Below are positions 2,229-60,262 of a DNA stretch of 64,000 nt, piece after piece. The notes beneath the pieces are model-generated. The model ran no database searches. It saw nothing but the letters and a program-made list of their open reading frames with translations, and was not told where the DNA came from. The position numbers and the translations under genes are program-made. The stretch lies in contig KL197718.1 in the NCBI GenBank assembly GCA_000697665.1, positions 937,099-1,001,098 of the forward strand. Direction: 5' to 3'. The stretch's first letter is position 1, and every line of letters starts with the position of its first letter. The stretch is from Jaapia argillacea MUCL 33604 (Eukaryota; Basidiomycota; Agaricomycetes; Jaapiales; Jaapiaceae).

Positions 2229-3438
2229 CTACAGAGGATAGAAGAGACAAGAGTAGGTGATGTGTGGCAGATTGCAAGTGGGTAGAAGCCGCTTCTTGGA
2301 GGGGGGTGATAGGGAGGGTGACGGATGAGCGTAAGGGCACAAGGACGCAGAAGAGTGGGTTTACGAACTTATAGATGAGACTAAGCGCTTGTAGAAGCAT
2401 ACAAGGAGCATCAAAGTTTCGTCGATATGGCACATGAAAGGGCTTGTGATGGACGATAGACTCAGATAAATGCTCAGTACTGGGCTCATTCCGAAATGAA
2501 GAACACGCCCTGTCCGTCCCCGCCCATAAGAGAGTGAGCGCCCGTCCGTAGCATAACTCTGATGTTGAAACCTATGAAAGGGCAGATTGTCGTGCCCATC
2601 CGGCAGCATGGCCTCCAGGAATGGGGTAGATATCGCACCAAGTGGATCAGAGTTTCATCTTGGTGTAAGACCCTGTTGCTGAAGCGCCTGATAGCGGTAG
2701 GTTTCCGAACAGAGTGCAACTGTGCAAGCGCCCAAACATTGCCTGCGTATTATCCTGGGCAATCGATGCCTCGCCGCGCAGATGCCTATAACCCGTTGTT
2801 ATCTTTGACTTATCCAATAGTCATACACAGAACATTCAAGAAAGCTCACAAACGCGGAGTCGAAAGGTAGCACTTGCTACAAAGAGAATCCCCCCCCCCC
2901 CCCCCCCCAAANNNNNNNNNNNNNNNNNNNNNNNNNNNNNNNNNNNNNNNNNNNNNNNNNNNNNNNNNNNNNNNNNNNNNNNNNNNNNNNNNNNNNNNNN
3001 NNNNNNNNNNNNNNNNNNNNNNNNNNNNNNNNNNNNNNNNNNNNNNNNNNNNNNNNNNNNNNNNNNNNNNNNNNNNNNNNNNNNNNNNNNNNNNNNNNNN
3101 NNNNNNNNNNNNNNNNNNNNNNNNNNNNNNNNNNNNNNNNNNNNNNNNNNNNNNNNNNNNNNNNNNNNNNNNNNNNNNNNNNNNNNNNNNNNNNNNNNNN
3201 NNNNNNNNNNNNNNNNNNNNNNNNNNNNNNNNNNNNNNNNNNNNNNNNNNNNNNNNNNNNNNNNNNNNNNNNNNNNNNNNNNNNNNNNNNNNNNNNNNNN
3301 NNNNNNNNNNNNNNNNNNNNNNNNNNNNNNNNNNNNNNNNNNNNNNNNNNNNNNNNNNNNNNNNNNNNNNNNNNNNNNNNNNNNGAACCCCCCCCCCCCC
3401 CCCAACGTAAATGTACCGTCCCCCTCAGTAATCCACCG
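2229..3438. other. gap-containing intergenic region
   Basis: No gene is recognised on either side of the run of Ns. The sequence is interrupted by 473 unknown bases. Confidence 0.6.
2912..3384. other. assembly gap (Ns) flanked by poly-C
   Basis: 473 Ns, bordered on the left by an 18-base C run and on the right by a 14-base C run. Homopolymer C at both edges suggests the gap arose because reads failed in a low-complexity tract. Reading frames crossing it are meaningless. Confidence 0.97.
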
Positions 3439-54666: not shown

Positions 54667-54674
54667 GCAGTACG
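54667..54674. repeat. target-site duplication, left (GCAGTACG)
   Basis: Eight bases immediately outside the left inverted end, identical to 59491-59498. Eight is the hAT hallmark. Confidence 0.93.
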
Positions 54675-54693
54675 TAGTGTTGCTGGCGGTTCG
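54675..54693 (+). repeat. hAT left terminal inverted repeat
   Basis: TAGTGTTGCTGGCGGTTCG, identical in complement to 59472-59490. Confidence 0.93.
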
Positions 54694-54768
54694 GTCACGG
54701 TTTGGTTTCAGTTCGGACTGGTTAGAGATTCTGGGGGGAGTTGGTTTTGGTTTTGGTCTCGATTGTAA

Positions 54769-54890
54769 CCAGTTCTCAACCAGTCCCAAACTGGTCTCAA
54801 CCGGTTGAGTGGCGGTCAGCTCTTAACCAGTTGAAACCAGTTCCAAACCAGTTTAAACCAGTCTAAACCAGTTTAAGTCAGTCTGCAGAC
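54769..54890. repeat. hAT subterminal motif array, left
   Basis: About ten close copies of AACCAGT or its complement ACTGGTT/AACCGGT, spaced 8-15 bases. Likely transposase binding sites. Confidence 0.7.
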
Positions 54891-54943
54891 ATAAGTTTAT
54901 TGAGATATACTCAGGTAAACGAAGAAACATCAAACGGAGTGGG

Positions 54944-57900
54944 TCACGGGTCAGCCTCCGGAAAGAACACCTCCGCATCATCATAGGTATCATCTTGCCA
55001 GTTCTCCTCATCGATCATACGCAAACGCTCAGCTCGTAGGGTGTCCTTCTCCTTGGCTGTTAGCTTTCGGGCACGTCTCCGCCGGTACCCTGCTTTGAGG
55101 AATTGCAATGCCTCCAATCGTTTGGGTGATAGGCGATTTCTCTTCTTCATGTCCGTAGCGCCGGCGCTGCTCCAGACGCGCTCGACGGGTGTGGCAGAGC
55201 CTTGGATAGCAAGATAGTCCAAGGCCATCTGCGACAGTGAAGGAAACTGAACCCAGGCCTCCTATGACAACATCAGAAACAGTACAAATAGAGCCAGCAT
55301 ACGGCACATACCTGCCAGTATTGAATGGCATTCCTCCTGTGATTGGATGGATGTGGTTCCAATGGCGCTTTCAGGTACCTCTCCACCTCGGATTCAAGTG
55401 GCGCGACTGGTGCACTGAATAAATCACCCCATACAGTGTGTGCAGTTTCGGATGGGGTAGGCTGTGGTGACTGTGCGTAGAGGCTCTCGTACTATAGCCA
55501 GGTCAGTTGAGAACGTGAGGACAACATATCTACGAACCTTTGCCTTGAAACAATCTGATGCTTCTTCCCAGAGTAGATTGCCTTCTTTCAACTTGTCCGT
55601 CCACCACGTCCGGAGATAATGAAGTTTCACATATGGAGTTAAGACTAGGTATGGGTGAGCAAAGAATAGAACAATGTGGAAGAGTACCATACTCATCGAG
55701 ATAGAATATGAATCGCTATGCTCCATCTTCAGGTAATAGTCAGCAAGTTTCGTGAGGCCTGCTTGGATTATAGGTCGATAAGGGTCATCCTCAGGGAGAG
55801 AATCTTGAATCTTCTCCCACTCGGATTGGAGGTACTCGATGGCAGGGATGGCGAGATGAAGAGTGGGATACTTGTCAGCTGAGAGGAGCTGTTGCCCGAT
55901 GTGAGCTTTCTGCAAGGGAATGAATGAGCAATGTACTAGAGTGAAAAGCCACAAACATACCTCAAGGATATCGATGAGGGATTTGATTCGCAACCATCCC
56001 CGAGCATTAATCTTGAACTTGGCAAGAGCATCAGCGTAGTCGGTTGAGGCCGCGACAAGATCTAGTGCCTGATGTTCTCTGTCAGTATCAAGCCTATACA
56101 GTGTTGAAGGCATGGAATTCTGACCTTGCGCAACTCATATGCTCGTCGCAACATAAAGTATGTACTTGACCACCGTGTTCGGACATCAAGCATTAGTTCC
56201 TTAGCTCCAACCCAATCGCCATTGGCGTTCTTCGACAAACCGTACTCAACAGCTTGTGCCTTGTGAAATGCCTGTTTGCGCAGAGACAATGTCCGTAACT
56301 AAGGAGTGCGAGTTAGATTTGAAACTGGAAGTTGTGGTGGCAAACATACCGCTGCAATGAGGCCTCGGATCGCAACCACTGGATCCCTCAAATCATCTGC
56401 AGTATACTCAACCTCAGTTGCAGCAATTGCGTCACGGAAGGGCTGCTTCGTGAGGGCCTTAACGACATCGCAAACAGCGAGGTTGTAAATATGGGCCATA
56501 CACCTATCAAAGCGGAGTTTACAAAATGGAGGAGGAACATGGGGATCAACCTTACCTGACGTGGTTGTTGGTTTGCGAGAATTTGATTTCCGGAATGTTC
56601 TTCAATCGAAGAAGTCTTTCGAGCTCTTGCATCATGGTCTCATTGTTTGATGCATTGTCGATCGTGACAAAACCAATCTTTAAAGAGGTTAGTAACCGAG
56701 TCCGAATCACAGGAGATGGTAATGAGCTGACCTTATCAACAATGCCAAGGTCTTCCATCACTTCCACCATAAGCTTCGCCAATTTTACTCCCGTGTGAGG
56801 TCCACGAATGAGTTTGAAACCAATGAGGTCCTCTTGTAAAGCCCAAACTCCATCCACAACAGCAAAATAGTGGCCGGTGATGCCAAAGTACGAATCCATG
56901 GAGTCGGACGACCAACAGTCACACGTCATACTAATGGATCCAAGAGCAGCCTGTCGTGATCCTAGCATCAGGATACTGATGGCATCTATTGGATGGAAGA
57001 CCTACCTTCAAACGCCCTCGAAGCTCCACTTTCTCCCTCTCATACTCCTCCATCGCAAGATCAGATATCTTTCCTCAACCAGGGAGGTCCATACGCTGGA
57101 TATCGGGCCGTAGTAACAACAACAGATCACGGAATTCAGGCAAATCTACAGTTGAAAGAGGCTGGTTGAGATAATCAGTAATTGGGCAATGCCAACTTGG
57201 AGAGAGAGACATTGTACAACGCACCAAATCGCAAGCAGCAATAAGCCGGAGGCACGCAAGAGCAAGTCGCTGAGCAGAGAATGGAACATGGGGCTCCTTT
57301 TCTACCAGGTGACCATTTAGCGTGCCATTTCGGAGTCCGTCAATCTCAGGACCAGTCCCATTCCTCGCCTCCATGACTTTCTGGTGTGCCTTAGGGTGGT
57401 TCATCTTCAGATGGCCAAAAAGGGTTGAATTTCCTGATCGCGGCGCATACGAGACAATAACATGATCAGGGTCCTTTTCGTTCATCTTTCTGGAAAGGAA
57501 GAAAATCATTATCAACCTAATACGAGGAAAGTGATGTGATCTTACTGGCAGACTCTACAGTGCCTTCAACCCCCCTCATCATCATTACCAGGTGTGAAGA
57601 ACATATGAACAGCTGCAGTCTTTCGCCTTGACTTGATACCTGAAGGATCAATATTTGGCTCTTCATCTGGCAGAGGAGGATCAGAATCGACAGTGTCACG
57701 AATTGGATCAGGCGTTGTCGATTGGGTGCTTGAGGATCCTCTCGCTGTGAATATATAAGTAAAGACCAACAGAAGATGAACAATATAAAATACTTTGGCT
57801 GGTGGCTTGTTTCGTCTTTGTCTTTTTCTTCGTTCGCTTTGTTGGTGCCTTCATTTTCCCATTACCCTTAGGGTCCTCTGTATCTGCATCTGAGTCATCA

Positions 57901-58455
57901 ACCACGATGGGCCCCTCTTCATTATCAGTGCCTAGAGACTAGGATCAATGGCGAGAATAAGGATGATTGTACCAACAAAAACCAGCATACCATTCCTTGA
58001 TTTTTCGCTATCACTACAATCAGATCGGGTCCGCTTTTTCTTTCTGGATGGACCAGCAATACTATTAGTGGCACCTCCCAACAGGGGAACATGGACATGC
58101 AATGCTGAGAGTAGGCCAACACCATGTGCGGCGAGATTGGCACTATCAGGAAGTGGAAGCGAAGATGAATTAAAATAAACTGAATATTTGAGGTGGCTGG
58201 GAAGACCTGTGAGGCACGCGATCTTCTGACGAAGAGTTGAAACTGTTGTCTCGCCGTTGATTACTAGAATGCGGTGGTTAACGAAACGGAAGGGAACAAA
58301 GGAAGTCACTCACGAATGCAAAGATCCTTTGATTGGTTGGGTAAGCCGCGAACTTGGACTGTAAAGTCCGTCGAGTGTGTCTCAAGCAGCCGTCGATAAC
58401 AGCGACGGGACAGAAAAGAAGGATGAGTACGCCGACGGCGGGGTGGAAAAACCAT
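54944..58455 (-). pseudogene. hAT transposase with N-terminal ubiquitin-like domain (two in-frame TGA)
   Basis: About a dozen exons on the minus strand. From ATG 58455, exon 1 gives MVFPPRRRR and TDFTVQVRGLPNQSKDLCI. A GTGAGT intron joins this to LINGETTVSTLRQKIACLTG, LPSHLKYSVYFNSSSLPLPD and LLSALHVHVPLLGG. The order of strands and helix, the length (about 75) and the GG end match a ubiquitin fold. A basic linker follows (PSRKKKRTR, KRTKKKTKTK), then a BED-type finger (CRVC ... GHLKMNH). The transposase core has CDCWSSDSMDSYFGITGHYF, FVTIDNASNNETMMQEL, TRWSSTYFMLRRA and the hAT dimerisation end YLAIQGSATPVERVWSSAGA. TGA codons in frame lie at 57566-57568, just before the finger, and 57075-57077; both fit CGA to TGA changes. 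The protein would excise and insert the element by DDE chemistry. Confidence 0.85.
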
Positions 58456-59339
58456 ATCAAGGAAGCTTCGATACAAGAGCACCGAGCCATTCGCTACGCA
58501 ACAAGCCTCGATGAGAATGACATCACGCAACGAGATAATTGAGAACGTACCCCATGTGAGAGTGATTGGAACAAGGAGAAGGAAGAGTGTCCATGTCAGA
58601 GTGAATGCGAAAGAGTGAACATCGGGGTGCCCAGAAATACAAGTTGGCAAGGATGAGGAAGAGCAACCCAATTCAACTTTCCACAAATTATATAAATAGG
58701 GTGACGAAACGGCAAGCAGAGCCACAAGAACAGAGATGAAATAACAGAACTCAGGGCCTTCGAAGTTGCTCTGGGATCGCCCATACGGCGAGAGTGCACG
58801 TCGAGGAAATGGGAACTAAGAACACTAATTGTGATCTAGAGACACTTCGCCCTTGCTTTATATACCTCTGCGAGCATGCCAGCATAAATCAAGCCGAAGC
58901 AACGGGCAATATATTTGAACATTCCACTCACCATTTTCAAGACATCCGCAATGTCAATCAGACATTGCAAATCTTGATTGTCGGAGGTGAGTAGCGGAGG
59001 GCATCGCTGGGGCGAGGAGAGGCAGGTGGCGACATCAGACACACCGACGTGAAACATATTTGACCACAGACAGATATTTACTATTGAGAACAAACAATTG
59101 TGTCCTTAAGACGTGAAGGGATGATCACCCCGATTTTAAACACCAGGAGTGGGATGGATCCAGTGCCGAATAGTGGAGGAACGCAACGATTGATGTTGAT
59201 GACTGCCAGCAATCAGCACCCAAAAATTGTGTTTGTTGGTGTCTATTTGACTTGCTTCTTGGCTTCTGGACTTCTTCCCATCATCCCAGAGAGCGACATC
59301 TCAACATTATAGTGATACCCACGAAACATAGGTTGGGAA
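58456..59339. other. hAT 5' non-coding region
   Basis: Between the transposase ATG and the right-end motif array. The minus frame stays open to 58725 with hydrophobic residues, but no start context or motif makes it a likely coding extension. Confidence 0.45.
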
Positions 59340-59471
59340 CCGGTTTGCTGCTGGTCTTAACCAGTTTCTCAAACATGACCGCCCCCTACGACAGTCGGTC
59401 TTGGTCTCGGTTCCGGAACTAACCAAGACTGCTTGAAACCGGTCTCATAACCGGTCTGAACCAGTTACCCT
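59340..59471. repeat. hAT subterminal motif array, right
   Basis: Several AACCGGT / AACCAGT units, the same words as in the left array. Confidence 0.65.
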
Positions 59472-59490
59472 CGAACCGCCAGCAACACTA
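59472..59490 (-). repeat. hAT right terminal inverted repeat
   Basis: CGAACCGCCAGCAACACTA, the complement of the left end. Confidence 0.93.
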
Positions 59491-59498
59491 GCAGTACG
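59491..59498. repeat. target-site duplication, right (GCAGTACG)
   Basis: Identical to 54667-54674. Confidence 0.93.
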
Positions 59499-59617: not shown

Positions 59618-60262
59618 ATACCTTAAACAGACCCAGCTGTAAGATGGTAGAATATCCTGAATATGATCCTTTCCATTGCCTCAATTTATCAAAGGGGTTT
59701 GGGGTGGGAATACAGTCGACAGCTAAGTCAAAATGTGATAACAGGTTTGACGAGACCCCATAGCTGATGCTCAAACTCTGAATTTGTCACAACCGACCAA
59801 ATTTAGAATTTAGCAGTCAGATAAGTGGCTTGGCATATTCTGACACAAATGCAAAGTATTGTCACAGCAGCATAGACAAAGTGAATGCTGATCTTTTTGT
59901 TTACCTTTGCTGCAGTTGCATACCCTTTGTAACCATGACAACACACTGAAGAATAGGATATGTGGCCACAGCAAAGGTAAACAAAAACATCAGCTTTCAC
60001 TTTGTCTATGCAATGGTGACAATACTTTGCATTTGTGTCGGAATATGCCAAGCCACTTATTTGTACACCAAATTCTAAATTTGGTCCATTGTGGCAAATT
60101 CAGAGTTCGAGCATTGGCTGTGGGGTCTCACCAAATCTGTTATCACATTTTGACCGAGTTGTCAACTTTATTCCTGCCCCAAATCCCTCAACAAACTGAG
60201 GCAATGGTAAGGATCATATTCAGGATATTCTAACATCTCACAGTCAGGTCTGTTTAAGGTGT
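59618..60262. repeat. large imperfect palindrome (foldback element)
   Basis: Two arms of about 300 bp, roughly 59618-59925 and 59955-60262, face each other across a short centre. By eye about 85% of bases match. Shared lines include CTTAAACAGACC at the outer ends, AGAATATCCTGAATATGATCC, GTCAAAATGTGATAACAG, AAATAAGTGGCTTGGCATATT-like and TTTGTTTACCTTTGCTG near the centre. No terminal target duplication was found. It could be a foldback or MITE-like element or an inverted duplication. Transcripts would form long hairpins, a possible small-RNA source. Confidence 0.85.

What the first reader, a model, noticed from the sequence alone, without database searches (positions are those of the whole stretch)
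54944..58455. Ubiquitin-like domain fused in front of a BED/hAT transposase
The spliced N-terminus reads TVQVRGL...KDLCI, LINGETTVSTLRQKIACLTG, LPSHLKYSVYFN, then ALHVHVPLLGG. Length, strand/helix order and a terminal GG are those of a ubiquitin fold, followed at once by a basic linker. A transposase carrying a ubiquitin-like head with a possible GG cleavage site could be processed by host deubiquitinases or interact with proteasome or repair machinery. I know of ubiquitin fusions in other mobile elements but not as a described hAT class.
Basis: partly seen in the sequence, partly recalled or inferred. Interest (0 to 1): 0.75.

Follow-up and report, generated by a model that had tools for sequence, protein, structure and literature searches.

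The report
Ubiquitin-like head on fungal hAT transposase
A jumping gene, apparently of a fungus, encodes its cutting enzyme with what looks like a ubiquitin-like protein fused to the front, which suggests that the element may plug into the host's protein-tagging machinery, although only this one, now broken, copy could be examined.

Summary
The gene lies inside a complete hAT element (54675-59490, minus strand) with perfect 19-bp inverted ends and an 8-bp target duplication. Fourteen hand-placed exons with GT-AG introns join into one 930-residue frame. Residues 31-111 match Pfam ubiquitin (E = 1.5e-4 trimmed, 7e-4 untrimmed; 21.9 bits, below the 25.4 cut-off). Against a small ubiquitin profile, 0 of 10,000 shuffles reach its score, and exon 2 gives the best of 1,642 six-frame window pieces. 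The domain ends in GG where ubiquitin does; a basic linker, a C-x2-C/H-x4-H finger and a hAT core follow. So this reads as a Ubl-BED-hAT transposase. The copy is dead: two in-frame TGA codons. Weak points: fold not confirmed; exon 1 weakly supported; no relatives found in the viral, prokaryote, plasmid and phage collections searched; no transcripts; GG cleavage untested, and ubiquitin's R72 and R74 are P and L here. Ten searches of an open-access library found no such hAT. New variant of a known kind.

The parts
54675..59490 (-). complete hAT element, 4,816 bp
   Evidence: perfect 19-bp terminal inverted repeats TAGTGTTGCTGGCGGTTCG
59491..59498 (.). target-site duplication, copy 1 (CGTACTGC read on the minus strand)
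   Evidence: identical 8-mer outside both ends
54667..54674 (.). target-site duplication, copy 2 (CGTACTGC read on the minus strand)
59472..59490 (-). terminal inverted repeat at the 5' side of the gene, 19 bp
54675..54693 (-). terminal inverted repeat at the 3' side of the gene, 19 bp
54717..54881 (.). subterminal AACCAGT/ACTGGTT repeats (two more at 59359 and 59459 on the other side)
   Evidence: 10 of the 16 copies in the window lie in the element, 8 near one end and 2 near the other; families D1-D3
54944..58455 (-). transposase gene, 14 exons, 930 codons plus stop, first in-frame ATG at 58455
   Evidence: 13 GT-AG introns of 46-78 nt, placed by hand, one frame throughout; true start not established
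58073..58365 (-). ubiquitin-like domain, residues 31-111, split by intron 58313-58264, ending GG
   Evidence: PF00240 E=1.5e-4 when trimmed to the domain; shuffle controls
58264..58313 (-). intron 1 (50 nt) inside the Ubl domain
   Evidence: GTGAGT...TAG; in-frame join
58025..58045 (-). basic stretch RKKKRTR after the GG, nuclear-localisation-like
   Evidence: read from the translation; motif recalled, not tested
57873..57911 (-). PIVVDDSDADTED, resembles a SUMO-interacting motif
   Evidence: read from the translation; motif recalled, not tested
57566..57568 (-). in-frame TGA (codon 244) just before the finger
57396..57559 (-). BED-like finger C-x2-C ... H-x4-H, split by intron 57545-57490
   Evidence: read; no Pfam hit
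57075..57077 (-). in-frame TGA (codon 368)
54944..57074 (-). hAT catalytic core and C-terminal dimerisation region; candidate catalytic residues D at 56920-56918, D at 56659-56657, E at 55183-55181
   Evidence: Dimer_Tnp_hAT 7.7e-14; Hermes transposase 4.4e-8; residue assignment recalled from hAT family knowledge, not tested

Best explanation
This is one insertion of a hAT cut-and-paste transposon whose transposase was built as a single protein: Arg-rich leader, ubiquitin-like domain ending in GG, basic then acidic linker, BED-type finger, hAT core, dimerisation region. SHOWN: element ends, target duplication, an open joined frame, hAT homology, ubiquitin-family sequence signal. INFERRED: the splicing; that the head is a folded beta-grasp domain; and that it does not work as a chain-forming ubiquitin (K48, K63, R72 and R74 are replaced) but as a docking or stability module, coupling the transposase to host ubiquitin/SUMO, proteasome or repair factors. 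Removal at the GG is the main rival (about 25%). The present copy can no longer make the whole protein.
For: Element ends and target duplication. Ubl lies inside the ends and in one frame with the transposase through 13 GT-AG introns. Ubiquitin signal: PF00240 E = 1.5e-4 trimmed, 7e-4 untrimmed; 0 of 10,000 shuffles and top of 1,642 window pieces; 20 of the 26 chains in the PDB sequence listing are ubiquitin, ISG15, FUBI or FUBI-eS30 records, the best at E = 0.052; the domain aligns end to end with ubiquitin, with a 2-residue and a 3-residue insertion, keeping the strand-1 pattern, GxP after the helix, LH in the last strand and GG at the end. hAT. Precedent for ubiquitin-pathway domains on transposition proteins: Ginger1 with OTU or Ulp1 (PMC2836005) and Helitrons with VTD or OTU domains (PMC9741609).
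Against: The Pfam score is under the curated cut-off. No PDB chain is significant alone, and 6 of the 26 listed are unrelated. AlphaFold models are low confidence; one of two structure searches shows no ubiquitin among the 50 rows listed. Exon 1 support is weak: 87 of 2,000 shuffles equal it, and codon usage prefers another frame there. The splice sites were chosen by hand to keep the frame. Only one broken copy was seen; no relatives were found, in collections that are not fungal and mostly by a method that finds close relatives only, so selection on the head could not be measured. No transcript evidence.
Confidence: 0.5

Rival explanations
1. Ubiquitin-fusion transposase: host deubiquitinases cut after the GG, releasing a free Ubl and a transposase that begins with ATNSIAGPSRKKKRTR, in the manner of ubiquitin- or FUBI-ribosomal protein fusions; the head aids folding or yield.
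For: GG at the ubiquitin end position, followed at once by a basic linker; closest of three compared Ubls is FUBI, which ends MLGG and is made as a fusion to eS30 (chain names).
Against: R72 and R74 of ubiquitin are P and L here, residues that ubiquitin enzymes usually need (recalled). A GG pair could be chance in one sequence; its conservation could not be tested.
Confidence: 0.25
2. The Ubl is a captured host exon without present function: a passenger fragment joined to the transposase by splicing.
For: Ubl score is modest and exon 1 weakly supported; only one, decayed, copy.
Against: The whole domain is kept end to end in an open frame; codon usage favours the stated frame in exons 2-4, though not in exon 1; both stops fall outside the Ubl.
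Confidence: 0.13
3. Chance resemblance: a stretch that is not a ubiquitin fold.
For: Poor fold models and no ubiquitin among the rows listed for one of them; Pfam score below cut-off.
Against: 0 of 10,000 shuffles reach the profile score; 0 of 20,000 reach the pairwise score with ubiquitin or FUBI; 20 of 26 chains in the PDB sequence listing are of the ubiquitin family.
Confidence: 0.07
4. Two genes: a small Ubl gene and a separate transposase gene inside the element.
For: Neither the start nor the splicing of the transposase has been mapped by transcripts.
Against: Exons 1-4 join in one frame up to the TGA in exon 4, and that frame is the one that continues through the finger in exon 5 and the hAT core, with introns like those in the rest of the gene.
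Confidence: 0.05

Closest known systems
hAT superfamily transposases (Hermes, Ac, Tam3)
   Same: 8-bp target duplication, short inverted ends, hAT dimerisation region, similarity to Hermes
   Different: N-terminal ubiquitin-like domain ahead of the finger, which I recall in no described hAT and did not find in 10 paper searches
Ubiquitin family PF00240; FUBI-eS30 and ubiquitin-ribosomal protein fusions
   Same: full-length domain alignment, GG end, N-terminal position in a fusion with a basic stretch next
   Different: below the Pfam cut-off; VPLLGG tail, no K48 or K63; fused to a transposase
Ginger1 transposases with OTU or Ulp1 domains (PMC2836005, passages seen) and Helitrons with VTD or OTU domains (PMC9741609, passages seen)
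   Same: DNA transposons carrying a ubiquitin/SUMO-pathway domain on the transposition protein
   Different: those carry proteases that act on ubiquitin or SUMO; here the modifier-like domain itself is carried, in a hAT
KAONASHI MULEs with a ULP protease domain (PMC2528002, one passage seen)
   Same: ubiquitin-like pathway domain in a DNA transposon
   Different: Mutator-like, a protease, in reverse orientation to the transposase gene in KI-MULEs (other ULP-bearing MULEs have either orientation)

Membership tests
hAT superfamily | 8-bp target-site duplication | tested here: met
   CGTACTGC at 59498-59491 and 54674-54667
hAT superfamily | short terminal inverted repeats | tested here: met
   19 bp, 100%; begins TAGTG, which fits the hAT end consensus as recalled
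hAT superfamily | hAT C-terminal dimerisation region | tested here: met
   PF05699 E=7.7e-14, 51.7 bits, above the cut-off of 21.4
hAT superfamily | similarity to a solved hAT transposase | tested here: met
   Hermes 6dww_A E=4.4e-8
hAT superfamily | BED zinc finger (common, not universal) | tested here: inconclusive
   C-x2-C...H-x4-H seen; no Pfam hit and no PDB chain
hAT superfamily | intact transposase (autonomous copy) | tested here: not met
   two in-frame TGA
Ubiquitin family PF00240 | profile match above Pfam's gathering score | tested here: not met
   21.9 bits (trimmed) and 19.8 bits (untrimmed) against 25.4, though E=1.5e-4 and 7e-4
Ubiquitin family PF00240 | beta-grasp fold | tested here: inconclusive
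   pLDDT 47.6 and 57.5; ubiquitin top hit at E=0.51 for one model, absent from the 50 rows listed for the other
Conjugable ubiquitin-like modifiers | C-terminal GG exposed by processing and activated by an E1 | not testable with these tools
   GG present at the right place; R72 and R74 replaced
Ubiquitin itself | chain-forming lysines K48 and K63 | tested here: not met
   both are L in the multiple alignment; K11 and K29 positions kept

The most novel reading that the evidence does not exclude
A lineage of fungal hAT transposons makes its transposase as a self-supplied ubiquitin-like fusion, released by host deubiquitinases at the GG, so that each transposase made also yields one free transposon-encoded modifier that could act on host silencing or repair proteins.
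Probability: 0.15. Interest if true: 0.8.

Novelty: new variant of a known kind. Interest (0 to 1): 0.52.

Why it matters
DNA transposons are known to carry enzymes that act on ubiquitin or SUMO (OTU, Ulp1 and VTD domains in Ginger, Mutator-like elements and Helitrons; PMC2836005, PMC9741609, passages). A transposase that carries a ubiquitin-like fold itself would be the complementary case, and would make the proposal that the ubiquitin pathway takes part in transposition (PMC2836005) directly testable: remove the head or mutate the GG and measure excision.

Tried and rejected
A frameshift in exon 4 was my first reading (recorded in my notes); it was wrong. With the splices set out fully, exon 4 carries a TGA codon and the frame is kept into exon 5, which also reveals the CRVC half of the finger (corrected). 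A slip of one base at the end of intron 10 was corrected. A further intron near 55694 in exon 12 was considered and left out; the frame is open without it.

Searches for relatives led nowhere. No whole genome is held for this window. Viral contigs with the Ubl, a core piece, the dimerisation piece, the finger piece and the inverted end (5 of 8 scans), genome contigs with the core and dimerisation pieces and plasmids with the core piece gave none; the contig scans start from exact peptide words and find close relatives only. One unannotated faecal phage record matched the Ubl at E = 0.02, not significant and not followed. No second copy of the element was found in the window. NCBIfam gave nothing for the first 243 residues. 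In Pfam, the weak second matches of the N-terminus were NAGLU_N (E = 0.041) and OTU1_UBXL (E = 0.14); five of the six unspliced transposase pieces given in that call matched nothing.

Literature: ten searches found no paper on a ubiquitin-like domain in a hAT transposase; the library is open-access only, so this does not show absence from print. Papers seen beyond the listing, passages only: PMC2528002, PMC2848206, PMC9741609 (12 of 29 places), PMC2836005, PMC8616336.

Full report
WHAT IS THERE. On the minus strand, 54675-59490, lies a complete hAT element: 4,816 bp, perfect 19-bp inverted ends (TAGTGTTGCTGGCGGTTCG), flanked by the same 8 bases CGTACTGC at 59498-59491 and 54674-54667. AACCAGT/ACTGGTT repeats lie in both outer parts: 10 of the 16 copies in the window are inside the element, 8 near one end and 2 near the other.

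THE GENE. Fourteen exons, separated by 13 GT-AG introns of 46-78 nt, join into a single frame of 930 codons plus stop, from the first in-frame ATG at 58455 to 54944 (upstream frame). I placed the splice sites by hand with the frame in view, so the open frame is partly built in; the other two frames of the joined exons hold 28 and 65 stops. The frame contains two premature TGA codons, at 57568-57566 and 57077-57075, so this copy cannot make the whole protein. The true start is unknown.

THE TRANSPOSASE. The part after the second stop matches the hAT dimerisation region (PF05699, 7.7e-14, cut-off passed) and Hermes transposase (4.4e-8). The part around the first stop shows C-x2-C and H-x4-H as in a BED finger, but neither Pfam nor the PDB sequence search matches it, so the finger rests on the motif alone, which I recall.

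THE HEAD. Residues 31-111 match PF00240 (ubiquitin) with E = 1.5e-4 and 21.9 bits when trimmed to the domain, and E = 7e-4 and 19.8 bits within the 139-residue N-terminus, over profile 5-69 of 72; the curated cut-off is 25.4. In the PDB sequence search 20 of 26 listed chains are ubiquitin, ISG15, FUBI or FUBI-eS30 records, the best a ubiquitin-eL40 fusion at E = 0.052; the other six are IpaH7.8 and fluorescent-protein chains. None is significant alone. Against a three-sequence ubiquitin profile the domain scores 18.5 bits, the best of 10,000 shuffles 8.2; among 1,642 six-frame pieces of the window the piece holding exon 2 ranks first (15.5 bits, next 6.6). Pairwise, 0 of 20,000 shuffles equal the score with yeast ubiquitin, 0 of 20,000 with FUBI, 9 of 20,000 with NEDD8. 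In the multiple alignment, K48, K63, R72 and R74 of ubiquitin are L, L, P and L; K11, K29, G35, P37, H68 and the final GG are kept.

LIMITS OF THE HEAD. Exon 1, which supplies the first strand, raises the profile score from 16.5 to 18.5; 87 of 2,000 shuffles of its 17 residues do as well, and codon usage learned from most of exons 5-14 favours the stated frame in exons 2, 3 and 4 but not in exon 1. The fold could not be tested properly: spliced protein may not be sent to the fold tool, and two contiguous stretches folded without relatives gave mean pLDDT 47.6 and 57.5. Foldseek on the first, which begins with about 15 intron-coded residues, ranked ubiquitin first at E = 0.51 among 35 matches; on the second, with about three intron-coded residues, no ubiquitin is among the 50 rows listed of 574 matches. 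Neither is evidence of weight.

HOW IT MAY WORK. Most likely the head is a docking or stability module that ties the transposase to the host's ubiquitin/SUMO, proteasome or repair machinery (inferred). The GG followed by ATNSIAGPSRKKKRTR would suit release by a deubiquitinase, as with FUBI-eS30, but the loss of R72 and R74 speaks against recognition as ubiquitin (recalled). A PIVVDDSDADTED stretch in exon 3 looks like a SUMO-interacting motif (recalled, untested). DNA transposons with OTU and Ulp1 proteases have led authors to propose that the ubiquitin pathway may take part in transposition (PMC2836005, passages), and Helitron VTD deubiquitinases have been suggested to protect proteins needed for transposition from the proteasome (PMC9741609, passages).

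WHAT COULD NOT BE DONE. No genome is held for the window. The collections searched hold viruses, prokaryotes, plasmids and phages; nothing related was found. Hence conservation of the head and of the GG, the key test, is open. The source organism is not identified; short introns and gene content suggest a mushroom-forming fungus (inference, not tested).

VERDICT.

Noticed in passing
59620-60260: A 641-base palindrome, about 82% self-complementary (arms of 234 and 84 nt reported separately), lies about 120 bases beyond the hAT end: a foldback or MITE-like element.
   Followed up: partly
2912-3384: A run of 473 N, with proline-rich translations on both sides: an assembly gap or masked stretch.
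   Followed up: no
58836-59105: An 89-codon open frame on the minus strand upstream of the transposase ATG, with GTGAGT right after an internal ATG; it could be an alternative first exon.
   Followed up: no
phage record MT835652.1, 21440-21640: An unannotated faecal 'Bacteriophage sp.' record matches the Ubl domain at 36.8% identity, E = 0.02; not significant.
   Followed up: no
57566-57568 and 57075-57077: Both premature stops are TGA; with intact ends and an exact target duplication this suggests a fairly recent insertion hit by point changes rather than by deletion (inference).
   Followed up: partly
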